NCBI GenBank assembly: GCA_003640385.1
Contig: RCAB01000217.1
Span: 1-64,000 of the forward strand
Direction: 5' to 3'
Origin: Setaria digitata
Lineage: Eukaryota > Nematoda > Chromadorea > Rhabditida > Setariidae
DNA: 64,000 nt
How positions within the stretch are numbered: position 1 is the stretch's first letter; each line of letters opens with the position of its first letter. A model generated the notes under the pieces. The model had not been told where the DNA came from, did no database searches, and saw only the letters and a program-made list of their open reading frames with translations. Below, in pieces: positions 9,499 to 23,162 of this stretch. The position numbers and the translations under genes were made by a program.

Positions 9499-12400
9499 AT
9501 GATCCAGTCACCTCTGCTAATATATTTTTTAATATATTATTTCGTTTCTCTTCAAGAAGCAAACGCTAGTTCCGTTACAGCTAATTCTGGTACCATTGAG
9601 GATGCAAATTCAACACTGTCAAGGTTTCTATCTATTTCCGACTAGTTTTTTTTTTTGTTTTCACCGGATTTATAATTAATGCAAAAAAATATTTGAATTT
9701 TAATTAATCCGTTAATACCTAAAAAGAATGCAACTGCTCGTGTGGAAGAGGGTTCTTCAAAAAATACAAAATGTCACAATGTGCTTTCAATGCTTTGTTA
9801 AACGAATAAATTATAATTTGTTAAGTTACAGTTAGCAGCAAGTTAGTTAGGAAGATGACTGGCATTGTGAAGGATGCCATCAGGTGCTTTTTCATTTACT
9901 AAAAATTAGTTGGATATTTTAAAATAATCATCTTCCAATATTTCTAAGGCTTCACTATCATGCATTTCCTGATGAGCCAAGTGATCACGCAGTATATTTT
10001 AATGGATCAACTGGATTACGTTTGAGTACGCCAATTTGGCAAATTCTCGCAAATAATATGCGTTTTGCTTTCACGCTGGAAATTTGGGTGCAAATTGATG
10101 GTGGACAACCGGATTCGGCAACAATAATTGGTTTACTTCCTATATCCAATCAACTTCTCTCTTTATTTTTAAACTTGGACAAATAGAGTCTATCTTTTTT
10201 TGTTTGTCTTGGTAGGTTTAATTTTCTAGAAACTTGGTAATGAGTTATATGCAGGAATCGCAATGTCATTAATCGAACCAGTTATTCATATGATTCATTG
10301 AATGTCAGAATAGAAAGCACGGTCTTAATCAGTTACTTTGGATTCAGTGTTCGGTGTTTTATCACATGATATTATCAGTGATCGTCATTTAATGATTATT
10401 CATTAATTATTTCTGTTTCTACTTTTTTTGCTATTGAACTTTATGATTGAAATTGAAGCACTTAATGATATATGTGGGAAAGAAAAAGGTACGACAACAT
10501 GGAAGATTTCAATAGAAACAGAACTTGGCGGTGAACACGGGGCCCATTTAGTGATATCATTGAGACCAGAATTATCACCTCAGTCATATCATGTCAGGTC
10601 ACTTATCATTCAATAACTTACTCGTCTGATTACTCTACCCAAAAGACTGGAATCACAGCATTTCATATGTTAGTCAATTCAGAATTAACAGCCTCCTTAA
10701 AAATTCATTTCTTCAAATTCAAATTTTAAAATAACCAGTTTCTCCCTTATCCTTTATACTTTAATGAAGACAACCTGAAAATGTAAACATATCAGTGGAC
10801 TATTTAAGAAACGGTAAACCCCATCGTCTAGGTGAATGGATTCAAATAACGGCGGCATTCGACTCACATCAGCTTTTACTTTACGTAAATGGCGCACGCG
10901 TGGGTAAATTGATACGTGAGGTAACAAATTACTACTAACTTTCTTTCTTTCTGCAATTTTGTGCAATTTTTTTTTTTTTTTTGCACATTCTCAGGTAGCT
11001 GAGATTGCACGCCGGATCAGGTTTTCAGGAGGTGCACAAAAAATGTCAAACAAATATCCAGTCTGTTTGTCTGACGGAATGTGCCATAAAAGCTTCAAGA
11101 AAATAAACAAATATTAAGAATAAAGCTTGCAGATGTAATTTGTTTTTAAATTAATAAAATATTTCCATGGCTTAACTTTCGAAATTCCATAATAAATTTT
11201 TTTTTCTTTTTCAGATCTCTAAGTCTGCAGCTTCCCAGCCATCAGTGATAATTTTTTTAATCTTTCAAACATTTGAGTTTTTTTTAGTTTGGTATTCTTT
11301 ATTCGGAAATTCGAAGTGCATGTAAAAGGTTATATTTGGCAACAGATGGCAGTGGATTTCATCGTGATGAAATAATCGGTTTTCGAGGATTTGTTAAGAA
11401 ATTACGCATAACAGATCGTTTCCTGGATCATTCACAGCTGATTCAAGGGCAATGGGAAGGAAATGCTATCGAGGAAAACTTCACAGATGTTCATCAGTGG
11501 AGACTTCTTGGTGCCAGTATTTGTTTGAATTATAATTAAAACACAATAATGAAGGAAACTTTCTCTTCTCTTGTTTTTCAGAACTTTTAATTCAAAGCTT
11601 TCATTTCAAGTTCACCCACTTATCACTATCACTGATAGCATATTTCTTGATTCCAGGAAGTGATTTGGGTATACGAAAGCAAGAAATTCCTCAGAAAGAT
11701 GCACCACGAAATATAGAAATACCACATTGTGGACAAACTGCTTGTGATAATCCAACCGTTGCAAGCAACTATTTGCATCATTGGAATTTGCATGCCATGA
11801 AGAAACTAAAATATCGTGTAGTTGTGATAAGCGATGATAACGGAAGGTTTATTCAATTTAACCAAGTCCTCTTGCGGTCTTGAATTCAGCAATATCATTT
11901 TTACTAAGCACCAAATTAATTAGATGAAGTAATTAATAGAGTGAAAAAAATTTCATTTACCATTTGAAAAAAGACATTTGAATATTTTTTTTGCAACATT
12001 TTTTTCGTGTTTTTTCTGTGATATTTATCATACTTATGTTAGGGACATGAAAATTGTATGAGAAAGGAAAAAAGATAAAATGTTACTTTTTTTTACATAT
12101 CAGAGGAATGATAATCAACATTTGCAACAATGACAATATAGTCTTTTAGTAAAATTCATAAAAATCATAAAAATTTAGAGCATTTAACTTTCTTGCGTAA
12201 TCAAACTATTAGAAGTAAGCATTAATTATTTGTAGCAACGAGAATATGAAGAAAGACTTTATCATGCGACAACATGCCGAACTTCTGAAGGCTTTCCTAC
12301 CATATAATATTACGTAAGCTTCCACTTTCACTGACGCTTCTCCGTCACGGACTACGTGATGATCGCCGTGAGTTGGCATTTCTGAATCAAAATGAATGCT

Positions 12401-15400
12401 TCAGGTGGGATCTTGAAGTGATCAATATCCGAAATACATCGTTACGACGTAAAACTATTGTATTCGGTTGTCAGTCATCGGCAATTGGTAACAAACGCTG
12501 TGATATCGAATGTCGTCATGCGATAACTGGTGATGATGGTGGTGATTGCAAAATTCAGGTAGCTTCAGCAATATTCATTTTAAACTAACTACTGTCTCTC
12601 ACCACTCATACTCATCAAACTTTTTGTGGATAGATTCCTATGATCTTACCTGGTTAGAAGTCAAGAACTTATTTAGCCCCTATGATAATACGTTCAGGAG
12701 TTGAGATATGCAGAGCACGGATCATTCGAAAGTGTTTTTCCCAACAGAAATTAAATTTTCTTCCCCCAAAAAAAAAGGAAAAATCCTTAGAAACACATCA
12801 TTTTGCTATGAAGATTTCTCCCCCTTGAAATATTTTCAACGAAATGAATTGGAGAAATTAAAATAAAATGTTCATTAACAAAATTGCTTTCCTGCACTCG
12901 AAAGAGTCAATGTGAAAAATGGATGCTTGGAAATCAGCAGTGTGACTTGGAATGTAACAATCGTGAAAATCACTGGGACAATGGTGATTGCTGCACTGAT
13001 TTTGCTCACAGTGATAATCAATTTTGCATTGATCCTACATCCATCTATAGGTGTGTTTATACATGATTCGACCGTAGTAAATTTTGCTGTTTCTGCTTCG
13101 AAGATTAACCAACTCTAAAATTGAATGGAACATCCTATGCAATGTTCCCGAAATCAACAAAAAAGCGTAATGAAATGATCGAGTCGTGCTGAACTGCACT
13201 AAGTTTTCACAGTTGTTAAAGCTATTCTTTATTCCTGGAAAAGGTAACACTTGGGAAGAAAAAAATTAAATTTAGACGTTATATCAATGTGGAAGAATAC
13301 AAAACAGCAGTTGGAATAGATAACGAAAATGGATTGACAGTTCAGTTTGGTGATTGGATCGCAAACGATCTGGTAGGATTTTCAACGTTCCCATGGGAGA
13401 AAGAAATTTACAGCAATCAAGGTGGAGTACTACTTCGTTATGACCGTTTCGGTACAACTGGACAAATCAATAACTTGATTCATGAAATTGGCCATATTCT
13501 TGGCCTCTGGCATGTCCACCATGGGATCAGTGAAGTACCATGTGGCGATCCGTGTCAGGAAAGAACACCTTCAATGACAACAGGTAACAGCTCTTTAAGT
13601 TTTCAGAAGATCTGAAGTACTTTCTTCGAAAAGTCAGACAGACTTTCACTTTTTCTGTAAAAAAAAAAAAAACTTCTTCTTTGTAGTACTGAAGACCTTT
13701 CCAGGTGACATGATAAGCGACACAAATCCAACTGTTAAGAATACAGCATGTGCCGATCCAGAAACAGTTGGCCCATGCGATGCAACTCAACAATTCAGAA
13801 ATACACCCTTTCGGAATTATATGAGTTATACAGGTGACGGGTTGACTTTATAAAACTATTCGTTACTTCAGCAATAGAGATAAATTCAATTCATGCCTAT
13901 ATAATTGTATAAAACTGATCTCGAAAAATTTCATTTCTTTCATCTCGATATCCGTAATTTTTTGCTTAGGTGACAATTGTGCCAATACATTCACTGCTCA
14001 GCAAAAAGCAAGAATGCACTGCTACATCGATTTGAAATATACAAATTGGATGGTGCGACCTGCATTATATCCAAACCACATTGCCGTTGGTCCACGAATT
14101 ATACCATGGCCCAAAGTAAACTCTAAAAGCATTAAAATTGTGAGTAATCATATCATTCTAAAATAATTACGAACTGCCGTTTTCCAATCATTTCTAACCC
14201 AATCAGGAAATAATTTTAATTTACATGTATAATACCTCCCAGAAATTGATTGGTTGTAATTGTTACTGATAATTTTTACAACTGCTTTAGATGTGGGCAA
14301 CACCGTTAAGCGGCATGAATTGTGGCCCACAACAAAAACGCGTTCGAGAAACGCACTGCACCACTGAAAGACGGATCGTACAATATGCTATCTCAGCTAG
14401 TTCATCTGAACCATTTCAGATGTCTGGATTCTGGGGTCCAGAACAAGCTACCGGTAAATGTTACATGTGTTTTTTGAAATTAGACCGATTGTGATAGTTT
14501 AAAAAAAAAAAAAAAAAAACAAATTCTACTACTGACACCGAATTATGACTATCAAAATAATCACTTTTTACTAGTTCGGAATTTCATATTGCCTACCGTC
14601 TTGTTACTAATTTATGCTACTTCTTAAATTTTCTGAAAAGTTGTTCAAATTGGTTACAGAAATCTGATAAAAGGACTCGAATACTAATTACCAACCATCT
14701 TCCAGCTCTATTTAGATTCCATTTTTTTCTTGTCCCAGTACTTTTCTGTAAGTGAATCGAAATAAAAAAAGACCTATAACTATCGATTACAGATCTTTTT
14801 TTAAAGTTTTATTCAACTGCCAAATAAAACTCACTAAATGGGGCTCATACTAATCTACACGACTGGATCCAATTTAAAGCCAAGATCTTCCAAACTCTTG
14901 GAATTCTCCATTTTTCTCAGTTCATCAACCTGTCTTTTAATTTCTTCTCGAGTTGCTTCAAGAGTCATATCAATAACTTTCATGTCATCTTCAATCATTC
15001 GTTTCGCCTGATCGGTGGTAACCTTGACAAATGTAGTAGTTCCAAAGCATATCCAATTCTTACTTTTCTGAAAAAGGTAAAGACAATATTTACGTCCATA
15101 TTTGGAGATTCATTGTAGAAGTAGCATCATATTAATGAGGACGACTAGGCACAGGCCTAAGGGTAAGGAGCTTGCCGTGTCGGCTAGCAAACTGAAATAT
15201 TTTCATCGTCCATGAAGTTCTGATCTTTATCATCCAGGTCATCGATGCTCACTTAACACTTTCGAGATGACTGTCATGTTATACTCAGCTATTACAAAAT
15301 GTTTTCGCTTAACACTAGTTAGAAAAGATTCAAAATTTAGCTGTTAATTAACCTTATTAGCGTTGTTTTTTGCCTCTTTCTGCAATTCTCGCAATGCTTC

Positions 15401-18400
15401 ACGACATTTTTGGCGTCTCTCATCCAGCTCAACCATTGCTCTTTTTCCCATAATAACACCTTGTCCCAAATTTTCCCATTCGGTCATATTATCTACTAAT
15501 TCTCTCGTCCTATCATCCAGTGATAAATTTTCCAACATTGCTTCAGCTCGTTCCACCATTTCCTTAAAACAGTCTTGCTTGTCAAGAAATCTTAGTCGGC
15601 AAGCAATCTTACCTGTCAGATACTTGTTCAGCAAATATACTTATTGGATAGTTTTATTCGTGAAGCAATATTAACTAACAAATAGTCATATTTGAAAAGC
15701 AACTCTACTATCATTCCCAAGGCTATCCTAGCAAATCAACTAACAGCAAACAAAACGAATGACGCAACAGTCAAGTATTATCGTGTTTACTGGATCGGAC
15801 GTGTTTTCTTCACACGTACGCATTCTACGGCCCGGTCATGTCTGTATCTGAATTTCTGGAACAGGCATGTGGAACAAGCTTAGATATGTGATCTTCGTAC
15901 GTTAGACTTCACGCATACCCATTGGAAATATACGCAAATTTTCTATTAGACGTGTAGCACGTGGAAATCTGAGTTCAGGACAGTCATCCTGCTATGGGTA
16001 ATCCGGTCCCATCAAACTAAAGAACTGTAAAAGACTTCAAAATTCAGTGGCTCAATGGCTTCACTCTTAATTCAAGTCTTCAAATGAGCAATAAAATCTA
16101 CAGAACAAAGTTTAATTCATGCTGTTCAATTTATTCACAAAAACTCATTTCTAAGTAAACACTTCATGTTATGAATCCTGTATTTCGTTAACCTTTAACA
16201 TTATCATTTTATTGTTGACAACTAGTAGGCGGAAATAATTTTCAAATTGCATATCATTTATAAATTAGATAATAGCAGTTCACCTTCAATCTGCCAATAA
16301 TTTATACAGTCGATAGATGATAAATGATTCGGAATTGTCAGGAGCACCGGATGCAGAAGTTTGTACGGCATCAACAAAAGCTTGGCTTCCGGATGTGCAG
16401 GATTGTGATGACGTAAGCGACAAGTGTACACTGAAATTAAGACCGGATGTTGAGACACAACTGGAAAAGCTCTCCATATGGATTGCATGGAATGCTGCCA
16501 GTGGTGTGCGATTTGTCAAAATTCTTTTTACTGACGATACCTATGATACATTTGAACAGGTTGGTAAATTATTTTAAACGAACATTATCAATGTTAACAC
16601 ACTCAGGCCCACACGAATTATCTAACTTGTTTCTTTTCGACTCAGACGATCTATTGAATTCAAACTTAATTCAAACTGTCTACATGATTTCTTTTCTTTG
16701 AACACTACACTTATTTTGTTAAAGTACAGAACTTCTTGAAACATGCCAATATTGATAGCTTTAATTAAATGATCATGATTTTTTTTGAAAATTTTACCTT
16801 CTTCGCAATTTTTGTATTGAATTTTTAAAACTCTGCTTTAGTGAAGTAACTGTAATCTTTCAGCTTTATGCACATTGCGATCAACCGTTGACTTTACGAC
16901 TTACCTCGCAAAAACGTGTCAAGGAGTTAAGTGATACGCTTTTCGTTTAATCTACAGATTCAACAAACAAACTTCTCACTCATACATATCATTTCCTCCT
17001 TTTTTTTTATAAAAAATAATTATTATTTTATTTCTTTTTTTTTGTAAATAATTATTATTTTATTTCAGGTCCAAATTAGAACTAACAATCCATTTGTGAG
17101 TATTGATGCGGTACAGTTCGTTTCATTTCCTTTAAATCCGTTATGTTCTCATTGTTTGCCGTATCGATATCGTATCTATCGCACACCGCCATTTCCGGAA
17201 GGTTTCAAAGAGACAACAAACTATCATATCATTGATAGGTAGTTCATCCTAATATTTCCAATTTTTTATATGGAAAAGCATGACGGTTCATTTTTCGACT
17301 AAGTATTGCAATCGTCTTCGGTCCGATTAGTAAGAGAAAGTTTTGTCCACCTGAGAAATGTCTGAATCGTTTCAGTCAGATAAATAGCGGAATGTTTTGT
17401 CTGCTGAAATGTAACCACAAATGTTTGTGATATCGGCAGGAAGAAAATTAATGCTGAAATGCATTAATGTGCAAATATCATTCGCTGAGTTTAGATTTTT
17501 CCTTTTTAAAATGTAAATTTCTTGTTAAACAAGAAAATTATCATTGCCGTCTCACCTTTTTTATTCTTGAATTTCAGCACAATTAAAGAAGGTGTAACTT
17601 ACACCTATTCAGTAGCAGTAGAAAGTGGAGGATTTGAAGGATTGCATTCACCGAGTACCACTTATTCCTATAACACAAATGTTTGTGGTGATGGGAAAAG
17701 AAGTATCGATGAGGAGTGCGATGATGGAAATTTGAATGATGGCGATGGTTGCTCACAGAATTGTATCGTTGAAGAAAAATTTCATTGTGTAGAAGAAAGC
17801 AAAGGTATGGTTTCAATTTGAAATTTGAGTTTAAATGATTTTTTTCCCTGAATTAAAATTAAATTAGTTAATGGAAAAAAGGAAAAGTAAAAAAACTTCG
17901 AAATATACCGGAAAGCATGGAGTATAAACCATAAAATTATTCACAAAGATAGAATGTAACAGAAAAAAAAAAACTGAATTCATCCGATTATATTATGAAA
18001 TTTTGATCATCTCTGTTTGTGCAATCGTCTGGTCAGTTTGGCGTACGGTCTCAATATAAGTTTGTCAAGAATAAATTAACTTGACGTAGAATGTTCAGAA
18101 CTAGATCAGAGTATTGTGTCGAAACTTTTCAGAATCGGCAAGTGTTTGCTATATTTACGAAGGAGACGGCCACTGTGAATCGTTCGAACGTGATGGTCAC
18201 AACAAAGACTGCAGCAGTATCAGTACATCTACAACTTATTCGCAGTATAATCCAGCAGTCGTTTACGCATATTCAACGCTGTTGCAGAAGAATTGTTCAT
18301 TGCAAATGCTTTCTTCCGCTCCTCTAACTACGGTGAAAATTTTCCTTATAAGTTAGACTTTTATGTGATTCTGATTACGTTTATCACGGCGATTGTCACT

Positions 18401-21400
18401 ACTGTTAGCCATTACGATCAAGTCCCAGTTAAACATATTTTTGTCTGTTATATTGCGCTTCCAATTGGTATAGATATGGTTCTCTATTTGGAAACAGATT
18501 CCAAGTGTATAGTGTATATTAGAAAATTATAACTAAGTAAAAATACAACCTCCTATAGTTATGTTTTTTTTTTTCTTTTTTTTTTTAACATGGTACCAAC
18601 TTGTATCAAAGTAGTGTATCAATTGTATTTGTGCTGTAGTACTAATTTGTGTTCAGGTAATTTGGCACAATTTAAATCGTTTACTGTTTATTATTACTTT
18701 AACTGTTTAAAGGGTTGTAATGTACGATCATCCGCTTGGGGTGAGTGTTCGCAACTTGCGGAAGCAGGAGAAATTTCGCTACATGCCTCATTTCCGAATG
18801 GAATCTTTCCAACCAGCATTTTGATCGGCTTTGAGACTATTTTATCAACCGGATCAAAACCGATGTTATCCATTATTGGAGTCAAGTTGCAATATGTCAA
18901 CGAAACAACTACAAGTCTGGAAGGTCACTTATCTTTTATTACCATTTATTCAAGTCTAGAATTTTTGCACTGTCAGTCTCATTCGATTAACAAACGAAAC
19001 GCATTCAGCGGTTGTACAGTTCGTTTCAGTGGAAAAGTTGTCATTAAATTCTTACTTAATTTACATATTTTTTTTCCTTCCTGCAAAGTTTGACTTTCTT
19101 TTTCTCGTTTTTCAGAACAAGGAATTCTATCATGTGCTCAAAATCCTCTGGAGGTTGCGATACCCTATGCACTTGTCGGCAAGCTGTCAGATATAAAAGC
19201 CGTTCATCTTCATATATCAAATCCTTCCCAAATTGTTATTACTGCAGTTATTTTGCGATCATTTAAAATGTTTGATTTGTTGACTCTTCAAAGTTGTGCA
19301 GGTAATACAAGTTAGAATACTTAAAAAATATCACGGCGATTTTCTGTATAAGGAAATTCCAACTTATTTTCATTGGTTCTTTAACTTTAACACGCAGAAG
19401 TCGTGCTGGTATCACTAGTATCACTCACTTATCTTTTGACAACGGATAACATTGATGTTACAGCTGAAAACAAGTATTTTGATCCGGTGGGTGGTTTTTG
19501 TGTAACGAAAGATTGCAGATCAGTGAGTCCAAGTTCCTGTAGAACATTAAATATTCCAAAATCAAGGGTTAGTACAACTTATTTCGAGATATTTCTTTCT
19601 CTTCGCCATTCTCTCAAGCATCAAAACTCTACTGTGTTTCCAAGTTTTAAGTGTTAAAAGAAACGAAGGTTTGTCTGTTTTCAATTTGCTGGATTTCCTC
19701 ATAAGAGTTTTAATAGATATTACTCCAGGTTTCCTGAGGAGTAATATTTATTGAAAGTGCTGGAGCTTATTTATTGAGGTTTTCTGAATTTTTCCAGCAT
19801 GAATGTCACGGCACGACTTGTATATATACATGTGAAGCCGGTTTTATGTTCGAAAATTCACAAAAAACTGCAACAGTACAATGTTTTAATGGTAGATGGA
19901 TAGGAAATATGAACTTAGCTTGTCAACCAATCCATTGTCCAGTTCCAAAAATTGAAAACGCTGAGCTCGATTGCCCAAACGGAACAAATTATCATGATCG
20001 TTGTACATTTCGATGTAGGAATAATGCGATGATGATTGGTATTATCTTCCTTCAAAGCAAAAAAGAAAAAGGATGCTAGAAGCTCATTCAAGTGGAATCT
20101 TTGTTAATGAAAGTTTTGATAAGTTTACAGTGGATAGAAGAAAGTTACACTAAGCTTATTAAGAATAAAACTACCGATATTTTTTCTTTCCATAGATTGA
20201 GAGAGGAAATTCTAAGATTGACTGTAGATGCAAAGAATGCTAAGAATTCTCAAAGAAATCAAAGAATCCTGATATACTTAATCATTTGAACTTAAACATT
20301 ATCGTATGAAACTGTTTCACTTGTTTACTTTTTCCATAATGGATGACAAATGAATTTTGTTAGCATGCATTTTGAGGACAAATGAATTATATAATATGCG
20401 AAGAAAATGGTTTGTGGACAATACCGGAAGCATTTTGTCAGGTAGCCAAATTTCTATCCGACCATCCCACGCAACATATATCGATGTGTCAGATTATCAG
20501 ACATACATTCTCTTCTAGTCTCATTATTGGACTACATTCTCTTTTTTTCTTGTCTCTTATTAATTACATTCTTTTTTTGTCCATTTATATTTTGTTCACT
20601 CATACAGTTTTTGCAGTTGATATCCTTTTTGTCATTCCATGCAATAAGCTATTCTATACGTAGCAGTTAAAATGGTCTGAATTTCAGGTTATTCTATTAT
20701 ACTGTAGACAGCTGAAATGGGATGAATTTCAGGTTGTCTGTACACATGATGGTTTGTTGATTCGTAATATTTCGGCTGATTCAATTAACTGCAAAGTGAA
20801 CCGCATTTATGACACACAGACCTCCTATCCGGTATCCACTGTATGCAGGCTAAATTGTCGTCGACATTATCGTGCATCACAAATGCAATCGCTGCATACT
20901 AAGTAGTATTTAAGTTTTAAATCCTTCATCGAATTTTCTTATAATCCATACAATAGTAATAGTATTTTGCAGTTATTAAGTAAATTAAATAAGTTAAAAC
21001 AGAGTTTTTCTTTCAGTACTGTATTCTCGGTAGTAAAGTAAACTGCAGAAGTTGAAAATTTGGATTTCTAATGATGGTAATAGTTTTATTTCATGTTGTG
21101 ACGACATTTCGTTGATTTCTCAAAAATAAAAACTTGAAAACCTTTTGCGCAGGATTCGTTTAGTTTGTTCGGATGATGGTGTTTGGATCGGTCCAACCTG
21201 TGTACCAATTACATGTCCTTCACCAAAAATTGTTTATATTGGATCATATGACTGCACAAACAGCTTCCAGATTGGTTCCAGTTGTCGAATCCAGTGTCCT
21301 GGAATATCTCAGGTTTTTTCAGTCTCGTTGCATAAGTTTAGTGTTATCTAGAGACTGCCATGTTCTGCTAGGTTTTGTAATTGCACCAATACGAACGTTC

Positions 21401-23162
21401 TGTTTTTGTAGAACAAGTATTCGGTATGCAAAAAAGATGGTACCTGGTCAAATCGCTTCCAGTGTCCTTCACCACGAACAAGTTGTCGTCCGCCACCAAC
21501 CATGCGAGATATTCAGTTCACTTGTCCGAGAAGGTTGACTCTCGGTGAGAAGATAACATAATGTCATAAAGTTGTGGTGTATTTATACTTATATGGGGAA
21601 TTTTATCTTGACGACAAATATGAAAGATAATTATTTAGAACAAGAAAAAATACCATTTATTGATACTGTATCTCTTCTATTTGAGCATAAGTTCGACCAT
21701 ACACTCATTCTTGAATTTCTATAACGTTAAGATAAAGTTTCAATTCTAGTTGATGTAATAATTATAGGTGCTATGTGTGCGGTGCAATGTCGCAAGAAGG
21801 GTTATGATGCAGTGCTGGAGGATAGACAAATCTTGCCAAGTGGAGAAAATTTGTTAATACTTCGTGCAGTACATAATATATCTTGCACTATTTCATCAAC
21901 ATTCTATCCAGTAGTGGATACTTTAAGCTGTGTACGTTCATGTAACAAAGTATGTTATCTTTTATTGTATTAATCTATCGAAACGAATTAACTGCCAGGA
22001 TTTTGGGCGTGAATTTTTAATTAAATTAAAAATAATTTAGGACAGTTCTAGCAGTCATTTCATCTAATTGTTTAGTTTCATATCGTTTATTTATTTTTCT
22101 TTGTACAACTCATCAGGCGAAGCATGTAACGATGTCCAGTAGCTACTTCTAAAACCGATTGGATGAATATACTATCCAAAATATCTGTGTAGAAATATCC
22201 AAAGTAAAGGATAAAGAAAACATGTAAATTGTTATTTGTTATTTAGCTTTTCCATGAAAGTGATCACTTAGACTGAATTTGATTGAACTAAGTGTCAGGT
22301 GATGTGGTCGGTCTCACTAGAACAGCTTGCAAAAAATTCTCGAGCAGAATTGGATCTCATTCATTTCTCTTCTTACTGACAGGAATTCATGGGCGACGGT
22401 TGGTGTGACTTTCAGAACAACCGCGGATACTGTGCTTGGGACGGCGGTGACTGCTGCGCCAGCACAGTACGTGGTGGACGCGTACGTCTGATGTTTCCTT
22501 CGCTGTGCACATCGATTCTCTGTCAGTGTATTGATCCGTTTGCTGTAGAAAACACGGTATCTAACAATGGTATCGATGCTTCTAGCAGGTATTTTTTTCG
22601 TTCTTTCACTAATCAACAAAAAAACGACCGTCCTGCTTCTTCTACAACCATAAAGGTCAAAGGTTATGAGAGGATGGAGAATGGTAGTTCAAATTCAAGT
22701 ACCGTACCCCTCCAAAAAACTCTGATAACCAGAATAGAGAATTTCTGTTGTTACTCTCATTCTTTTTTACTTCAAATGAAGCCATTTGCTCGAGAGAACT
22801 CAACTAAGAAGCCGGAAGGTGTTAAAACTACAGTAAGGAATGCTTACGTAACCTGTTGCAGTTTACTACGTGAGCGCAAGAGTACAATGAAACGTACAAC
22901 TCGATATCATCCGGTTTTTGATCCGCTTCTGCATCCAGCCGTAGATACTTCTTCCGCTGCATTTGCAATTTCATTAGCCGATACAGCTTTTCTTTCACGA
23001 AATGATGTACATATGGATCGAACTCGAGATTCAAATTATGAACAGCGTGTCGATAGACCAAAAAATGTACCATCGAAGAGTATCAAAAACTGGGAGACAA
23101 TTACACGTTCTGTGAAAAGTGCCTTAACAGTATATCGGCAACAATTCAATAACAAAGTTTGA
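9499..23162 (+). CDS. Pappalysin-family secreted metalloprotease (PAPP-A-like, M43B)
   Basis: Twenty-eight exons join in phase to 1774 residues: 9499-9623, 9949-10130, 10459-10597, 10770-10920, 11288-11510, 11657-11846, 12236-12313, 12405-12558, 12905-13050, 13276-13583, 13687-13833, 13970-14139, 14291-14453, 16342-16559, 16864-16944, 17069-17238, 17578-17804, 18112-18332, 18713-18923, 19116-19301, 19464-19567, 19798-20038, 20377-20441, 20733-20902, 21153-21312, 21412-21544, 21768-21949, 22383-23162. Order of parts: signal peptide (about 1-25), LamG-like domain (about 43-265), two LNR modules (about 385-445), catalytic metzincin domain with [11 protein letters not shown] at about 532-542 and Met-turn NYMSYT near 607, a Cys/Asp-rich CGDG...CDDGN module (about 915-950), sushi/CCP repeats (about 1200-1460), and a third LNR (GDGWCD...DGGDC, about 1520-1545). 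This order matches vertebrate PAPP-A, which cleaves IGF-binding proteins; the substrate here is unknown. No clear propeptide, and an extra C-terminal tail. Acceptors at 18112, 19464 and 20733 are least certain. Confidence 0.93.
14855..15559 (-). CDS. pdrg1: PDRG1-like prefoldin-type subunit, nested antisense in pappalysin intron 13
   Basis: Two exons, 15559-15353 and 15067-14855 (stop TAG), join in phase 0 to 139 residues; human PDRG1 is 133. The central helix [19 protein letters not shown] corresponds to the conserved KRQIVDLDTKRNQNREGL of PDRG1. [12 protein letters not shown] matches the beta-hairpin, followed by a second long coiled-coil helix ([15 protein letters not shown]). PDRG1 is a prefoldin-like component of the R2TP/PAQosome chaperone assembly. 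An open frame runs upstream to 15634 without an earlier ATG, so the first ATG at 15559 is taken as start. It is preceded by TTTTAAG, a plausible splice or trans-splice acceptor. The whole gene sits on the opposite strand inside a 1.9 kb intron (14454-16341) of the protease gene. Confidence 0.9.
15560..16341. other. Rest of pappalysin intron 13, upstream of the nested PDRG1 gene
   Basis: About 0.78 kb that must contain the PDRG1-like promoter if that gene is transcribed independently. 15,770-16,010 is less AT-rich than the surrounding introns. Open frames here on the + strand show no family features. The intron ends at the TTGTCAG acceptor at 16341. Confidence 0.45.
20663..20735 (+). repeat. 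Near-duplicate 28-nt splice-acceptor segment, 45 nt apart
   Basis: 20663-20690 and 20708-20735 match at 23 of 28 positions and both end in GAATTTCAGGTT, so two AG acceptors (after 20687 and 20732) lie exactly 45 nt apart. The sequence between them is open in the frame of exon 20733-20902, so either acceptor gives an in-frame protein, the upstream one adding 15 residues. Seen directly; which acceptor is used is not known. Confidence 0.75.

What the first reader, a model, noticed from the sequence alone, without database searches (positions are those of the whole stretch)
9499..23162. Full-architecture pappalysin (PAPP-A-like) protease in a nematode genome
Seen: signal peptide, LamG, two LNRs, [11 protein letters not shown] zinc site, Met-turn, CGDG module, sushi repeats and a C-terminal LNR, in the same order as vertebrate PAPP-A. 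Known: vertebrate pappalysins cut IGF-binding proteins and so raise IGF availability. Inference: nematodes have insulin-like peptides but no well-known IGFBP, so this protease must have another substrate, or, in a parasite, could act on host binding proteins. Either would be new biology.
Basis: partly seen in the sequence, partly recalled or inferred. Interest (0 to 1): 0.75.

Follow-up and report, generated by a model that had tools for sequence, protein, structure and literature searches.

The report
Filarial worm relative of human PAPP-A
This is a complete worm version of the animal protease PAPP-A, which in vertebrates frees growth factors from their carrier proteins; relatives are already recorded in parasitic and free-living worms and across animals, so the gene is real but its presence is not new.

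Summary
Window 9499-23162 (+) encodes one pappalysin of about 1630 residues in 28 exons: signal-peptide-like start, LamG, LNR1-2, [11 protein letters not shown] zinc site, Met-turn, CGDG module, five sushi modules by cysteine pattern, LNR3. It matches solved pappalysin-1 over most of its length (E 9e-208) and pappalysin-2 in two long stretches. The window is Setaria digitata or very near it. The 'new biology' claim is weak. Nematode pappalysins with PAPP-A's length and architecture are in print and in databases, Panagrellus (free-living, by recall) included. Eight nematode sequences group together on a tree, as vertical descent gives. New details: the filarioid models listed are fragments, and the two deposited Setaria halves abut at an intron holding a putative antisense gene, most likely an annotation artefact. 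The cysteine that ties PAPP-A to stanniocalcin-2 and proMBP is in 6 of 6 vertebrate and 0 of 27 other chosen rows. One conserved exon has no GT donor here. Most likely a secreted zinc protease cutting a few extracellular proteins, perhaps in insulin-like signalling; substrate unknown. Ordinary; modest annotation value.

The parts
9499..9623 (+). exon 1: start codon and hydrophobic signal-peptide-like stretch
   Evidence: relatives P0085 and P0087 have a matching start; signal peptide judged by eye
9949..11510 (+). exons 2-5 (9949-10130, 10459-10597, 10809-10920, 11288-11510): laminin-G-like domain
   Evidence: Laminin_G_3 above cut-off; boundaries set by filarioid relatives
11657..12313 (+). 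exons 6-7 (11657-11846, 12236-12313): start of the proteolytic domain
12405..13050 (+). exons 8-9 (12405-12558, 12905-13050): LNR1 and LNR2
   Evidence: Notch, two stretches; aligned block
13276..13583 (+). exon 10: catalytic core with [11 protein letters not shown]
   Evidence: zinc ligands and Glu identical in 33 of 33 aligned rows
13705..14453 (+). exons 11-13 (13705-13833, 13970-14139, 14291-14453): Met-turn NYMSY and start of the middle domains
14454..16341 (+). large intron at which the deposited Setaria gene models are cut in two
14855..15640 (-). putative nested antisense gene (two open pieces, 15344-15640 and 14855-15109); PDRG1/prefoldin-like by recall only
   Evidence: open frames; Pfam and PDB give nothing convincing
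16342..17238 (+). exons 14-15 (16342-16559, 17069-17238): middle domains
16864..16926 (+). conserved 21-codon exon followed by TT instead of GT; left out of the model
   Evidence: a narrow pattern finds the segment in filarioids, other nematodes and other animals; sequence shown; one match in the assembly
17578..17804 (+). exon 16: CGDG module (DUF4215)
   Evidence: DUF4215 above cut-off
18133..19301 (+). exons 17-19 (18133-18332, 18713-18923, 19116-19301): middle domains
19464..21949 (+). exons 20-26 (19464-19567, 19798-20038, 20377-20441, 20733-20902, 21153-21312, 21412-21544, 21768-21949): dimer cysteine and sushi modules 1-5
   Evidence: Sushi, four stretches; all CCP1-5 cysteine positions kept
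22383..23162 (+). exons 27-28 (22383-22588, 22862-23162): LNR3 and C-terminal tail to the stop codon

Best explanation
A single nematode gene encodes an orthologue of the animal pappalysins, inherited vertically within animals. Shown by sequence: complete domain order, zinc-binding and Met-turn residues, three LNRs, most disulfide cysteines and the dimer cysteine. Inferred: it is secreted, dimerises, and uses its LNR and C-terminal parts as exosites to cut one or a few extracellular proteins. The Asp in the S1' position suggests cleavage before a basic residue. The most likely job is internal to the worm: releasing or trimming an insulin-like-peptide binding protein or another matrix or growth-factor regulator. 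It cannot form the vertebrate type of disulfide with STC2 or proMBP at that site, because the cysteine is absent. The deposited split into two genes is an annotation artefact at a large intron.
For: Pappalysin-2 and pappalysin-1 are the top solved structures. Zinc ligands, Glu and Met are identical in 33 of 33 rows; the S1' Asp is present in the window. 76 of 80 PAPP-A cysteine positions are kept, with the dimer cysteine 1130 (numbering from PMC9780223). Eight nematode rows separate from 25 others with SH-aLRT 100. In the genome the N-half gives 13 exon-wise matches, 13 of 13 at this locus (the C-half was not searched). The Setaria halves meet at residue 707: the N-half ends by reading into the intron and the C-half starts by reading out of it. 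The joined stretch is contiguous, by eye, in 30 of the 32 relatives aligned.
Against: No transcript was available. The missing GT donor at 16927 would drop 21 residues including the partner of a conserved disulfide, so this copy might be impaired, use an unusual splice, or hold a sequence error. Two residues that PMC9780223 names as touching the IGFBP anchor, Asn683 and His781, are Asp and Phe in the window. Thelazia's model has an insert at the 707 junction and Panagrolaimus's lacks the stretch. No filarioid protein listed, which admit full-length ones, is full-length. Substrate and site of action are untested.
Confidence: 0.75

Rival explanations
1. The gene has really split in filarioids: an N-half (LamG-LNR-M43) and a C-half (middle domains-sushi-LNR3) are separate genes with the antisense gene between them.
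For: The filarioid proteins listed are one half or a piece of one: 8 of 11 rows (whose length limits exclude full-length proteins) and 6 of the 120 rows listed; one search lists 3 filarioid rows of 82, none full-length.
Against: The break lies inside a conserved stretch. Three N-halves (Setaria, Onchocerca, Dirofilaria) end at residue 707 with different read-through tails; four of six C-halves begin to match at residues 699-707 after unrelated residues; by eye none of the six has a clear signal peptide. Donor and acceptor are intact and in frame. The other N-halves end at 553-554 (three) or 683 and 697 (Brugia), and two C-halves start at 713 and 761, as fragmentary predictions do.
Confidence: 0.06
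2. A secreted parasite effector that cuts host IGF-binding proteins and alters host IGF signalling.
For: Architecture, zinc site and S1' Asp are shared with IGFBP-cutting PAPP-A.
Against: Panagrellus, free-living by recall, has a full-length orthologue; the tree fits vertical descent; two IGFBP-anchor contact residues differ; nothing here shows release into a host.
Confidence: 0.06
3. A decaying gene in this species or individual, because a conserved exon lacks its GT donor.
For: The donor reads TT after the conserved exon end; one match in the assembly; the exon carries the partner cysteine of a disulfide.
Against: No internal stop in 28 exons; skipping that exon keeps frame; one base can be a sequencing error; five filarioid relatives keep the segment.
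Confidence: 0.08

Closest known systems
Vertebrate PAPP-A (pappalysin-1) and PAPP-A2 (pappalysin-2)
   Same: Domain order, zinc motif, Met-turn, three LNRs, five CCPs and 76 of 80 cysteine positions
   Different: About 31-38 percent identity; no Cys652 for STC2/proMBP; different residues at two IGFBP-anchor positions
Nematode pappalysins (Thelazia, Trichinella, Trichuris, Panagrellus, Panagrolaimus)
   Same: Full-length orthologues that group with the window
   Different: 62 percent (Thelazia) to about 35 percent (others) identity
Split filarioid models, including Setaria digitata P0083 and P0094
   Same: 655 of 667 and 916 of 921 aligned residues identical to the model
   Different: Deposited as two proteins; some exons chosen differently
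Unicellular pappalysins (mirolysin, ulilysin)
   Same: Catalytic domain match, E 2.5e-08 to 3.7e-04
   Different: Short proteins with matches confined to the catalytic domain

Membership tests
Metazoan pappalysin (M43B, PAPP-A type) | M43 catalytic domain with HEXXHXXGXXH and Met-turn | tested here: met
   Peptidase_M43 28.5 bits, cut-off 23; residues identical in 33 of 33 rows
Metazoan pappalysin (M43B, PAPP-A type) | N-terminal LamG and two LNRs inside the proteolytic domain | tested here: met
Metazoan pappalysin (M43B, PAPP-A type) | Middle domains, CCP1-5 and C-terminal LNR3 | tested here: met
   Sushi four stretches; CCP and LNR3 cysteine positions kept
Metazoan pappalysin (M43B, PAPP-A type) | Phylogenetic placement among animal pappalysins | tested here: met
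   33 chosen rows, quick method, nematodes split from the rest with SH-aLRT 100; no outgroup, midpoint root
Metazoan pappalysin (M43B, PAPP-A type) | One continuous transcript | not testable with these tools
   no RNA data; frame and splice sites agree
IGFBP-cleaving, STC2-regulated PAPP-A | Cys652 for disulfide with STC2/proMBP | tested here: not met
   Phe in the window; Cys in 6 of 6 vertebrate and 0 of 27 other rows, 3 of them gaps
IGFBP-cleaving, STC2-regulated PAPP-A | Cleavage of an IGF-binding protein | not testable with these tools
   needs an assay
IGFBP-cleaving, STC2-regulated PAPP-A | Genome also holds STC and IGFBP genes | tested here: inconclusive
   STC: no match, but no control rang, and a paper passage says STCs occur in nematodes (PMC12819173); IGFBP: one match at 22.3 bits, cut-off 28

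The most novel reading that the evidence does not exclude
A filarial worm releases a full pappalysin that cuts host IGF-binding proteins while escaping the covalent control by STC2 and proMBP, because the attachment cysteine is absent. This would be an ancient housekeeping enzyme turned on the host.
Probability: 0.05. Interest if true: 0.65.

Novelty: already known. Interest (0 to 1): 0.22.

Why it matters
The result corrects a likely annotation error: the filarioid pappalysin is very probably one gene, not two. It also gives a testable evolutionary point: the STC2/proMBP attachment cysteine is seen only in the vertebrate rows examined, while the enzyme itself is listed from Trichoplax to nematodes. 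A free-living nematode with this enzyme would be a simple place to look for the ancestral substrate.

Tried and rejected
Led nowhere: a plasmid search with the catalytic exon (no match); Pfam M43 against the genome (nothing, probably because exons split the domain); stanniocalcin in the genome (uninformative because no control rang); insulin family (three matches below cut-off); a search on split gene models (listing only); identity of the nested gene (nothing convincing). Papers on pappalysin-1 inhibitors (family I63) in nematodes (PMC4578762, PMC10866927, passages) concern inhibitors, not this enzyme.

Corrected: one search used one numbering offset, so its rows after human position 755 are wrong. 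still misplaced 781, 798 and 801 and gave 74 of 80 cysteines; one search puts 798 and 801 right and gives 76 of 80, with the turtle reference at 80 of 80. One search held a one-base error at the end of exon 27, corrected.

Rejected: exon 10995-11060, since six of eight other models read (Thelazia and seven filarioids) join the flanking exons directly, while the deposited Setaria model keeps it; the retained intron in the last exon; exon starts 10489 and 10770. Gain from the host was rejected on the tree.

Full report
What was checked. The finding claims one PAPP-A-like gene at 9499-23162. A splice-aware scan gave 25 exons and 1662 residues; three exons missed by that scan were added by frame, giving 28 exons and 1748 residues. 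Relatives then corrected the model: one exon dropped, one intron added, three edges moved. The refined model has 28 exons and 1630 residues with no internal stop.

What it is. The 1748-residue model hits pappalysin-2 (E 3.4e-210, two stretches) and pappalysin-1 (E 9e-208, residues 51-1547) among solved structures; further matches are decay-accelerating factor and factor H for the sushi part and mirolysin and ulilysin for the catalytic part (22 distinct sequences). Pfam finds LamG, LNR, M43, Sushi and DUF4215. In an alignment of 33 rows that I chose (the window and 32 of the 207 proteins held) the zinc ligands, catalytic Glu and Met-turn Met are identical in all rows. PAPP-A cysteine numbering was taken from PMC9780223 Table 1 (passages) and mapped through a turtle PAPP-A, which has Cys at 80 of 80 positions. 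The window keeps 76 of 80, including the dimer cysteine 1130 and all CCP and LNR3 positions. Not kept are 520 (unpaired in human), 630, 652 and 755; 755 lies in the exon I left out.

Whose genome. Two deposited proteins named Setaria digitata, P0083 and P0094, match the model at 655 of 667 and 916 of 921 aligned residues, so the window is S. digitata or very close to it. The N-half matches only this locus in the 75.6 Mb assembly (13 of 13 matches); the C-half was not searched.

Is it new? No. PMC6949598 (passages) says potential orthologues in nematodes and other animals share PAPP-A's length and multi-domain structure. PMC3050887 (passage) tabulates Brugia malayi A8PP49, 'pregnancy-associated plasma protein E', with a 14-residue motif two residues off the window's [14 protein letters not shown]. 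The homologue search (82 proteins) lists full-length proteins from seven non-filarioid nematode records: Thelazia, two Trichinella, two Trichuris, Panagrellus and Panagrolaimus. It also lists, grouping by recall, molluscs, annelids, arthropods, echinoderms, chordates, cnidarians and Trichoplax. No Caenorhabditis name is visible in that list, but many rows are unnamed or truncated and the search needs shared words, so absence is not shown. The tree of 33 rows, quick method and midpoint root, separates the eight nematodes from the rest (SH-aLRT 100), with the window next to Thelazia and Trichinella next to Trichuris. It had no outgroup, three forks are open, and some deeper placements, such as cnidarians among deuterostomes, are not credible. 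Still, it fits vertical descent and not a gain from a host. Paper searches for pappalysin with nematode, filarial, helminth and Trichinella returned 12, 2, 8 and 2 papers. In those listings and the passages I opened I saw no functional study of a nematode pappalysin; several listed papers I did not open.

One gene or two. admit full-length proteins and list 3 filarioid rows of 82 and 6 of 120 shown (209 found), none full-length. One search, whose length limits exclude full-length ones, lists 8 filarioid rows of 11. The two Setaria models meet at model residue 707, the intron 14454-16341. P0083 ends in 12 residues read from that intron; P0094 begins with residues read from its 3' end. The Onchocerca and Dirofilaria N-halves stop at the same residue with different tails; three others stop at 553-554 and the two Brugia ones at 683 and 697. 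Four of six C-halves begin to match at 699-707, the others at 713 and 761. A putative antisense gene lies in this intron. I take the split as an artefact; true fission is kept as a rival.

Regulation. PAPP-A Cys652 (Cys732 in precursor numbering; PMC9780223 and PMC9579167, passages) bonds to STC2 and to proMBP. It is Cys in 6 of 6 vertebrate rows and in 0 of 27 others, 3 of those being gaps; the stretch is poorly conserved, so some alignment doubt remains. The S1' Asp (D641 in precursor numbering) is Asp in the window and Thelazia but Gly or Glu in the other six nematode rows, so cleavage preference may differ among nematodes. The IGFBP-anchor contacts Asn683 and His781 are Asp and Phe in the window; 781 also varies among vertebrates.

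A flaw worth noting. The exon 16864-16926, whose segment a narrow pattern finds in filarioids, other nematodes and other animals, is followed here by TT, not GT. It carries the partner of a conserved disulfide (human C673-C755). The stretch has one match in the assembly. Sequencing error, unusual splicing, in-frame skipping or decay cannot be told apart here.

How it most likely works (inference). A secreted, probably dimeric zinc protease binds a specific extracellular substrate through LNR and C-terminal exosites and cuts it, as vertebrate PAPP-A does with IGFBPs. In nematodes the substrate is unknown. Because a free-living species has the gene, an internal role, plausibly in insulin-like signalling, is more likely than a host-directed one.

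Noticed in passing
window 16864-16926: Conserved 21-codon exon whose donor reads TT; absent from my model and from the deposited Setaria protein P0094.
   Followed up: partly
window 14855-15640 (-): Putative antisense gene nested in the large intron; looks PDRG1/prefoldin-like by recall, without convincing support from Pfam or PDB.
   Followed up: partly
window from about 24090 (+): A gene with ankyrin-like repeats lies directly downstream; the Dirofilaria record P0078 runs from the pappalysin C-half into a similar protein, so gene order seems shared and that record is probably a fusion of two genes.
   Followed up: no
P0089, P0090, P0096 (Brugia): Brugia models lack several stretches that Wuchereria keeps; annotation fault or gene decay, not resolved.
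   Followed up: no
L001 (G000:C565:12627-12767): Sub-threshold IGFBP-domain match in the same genome, a lead for a possible binding protein; my reading of the locus did not resolve it.
   Followed up: partly
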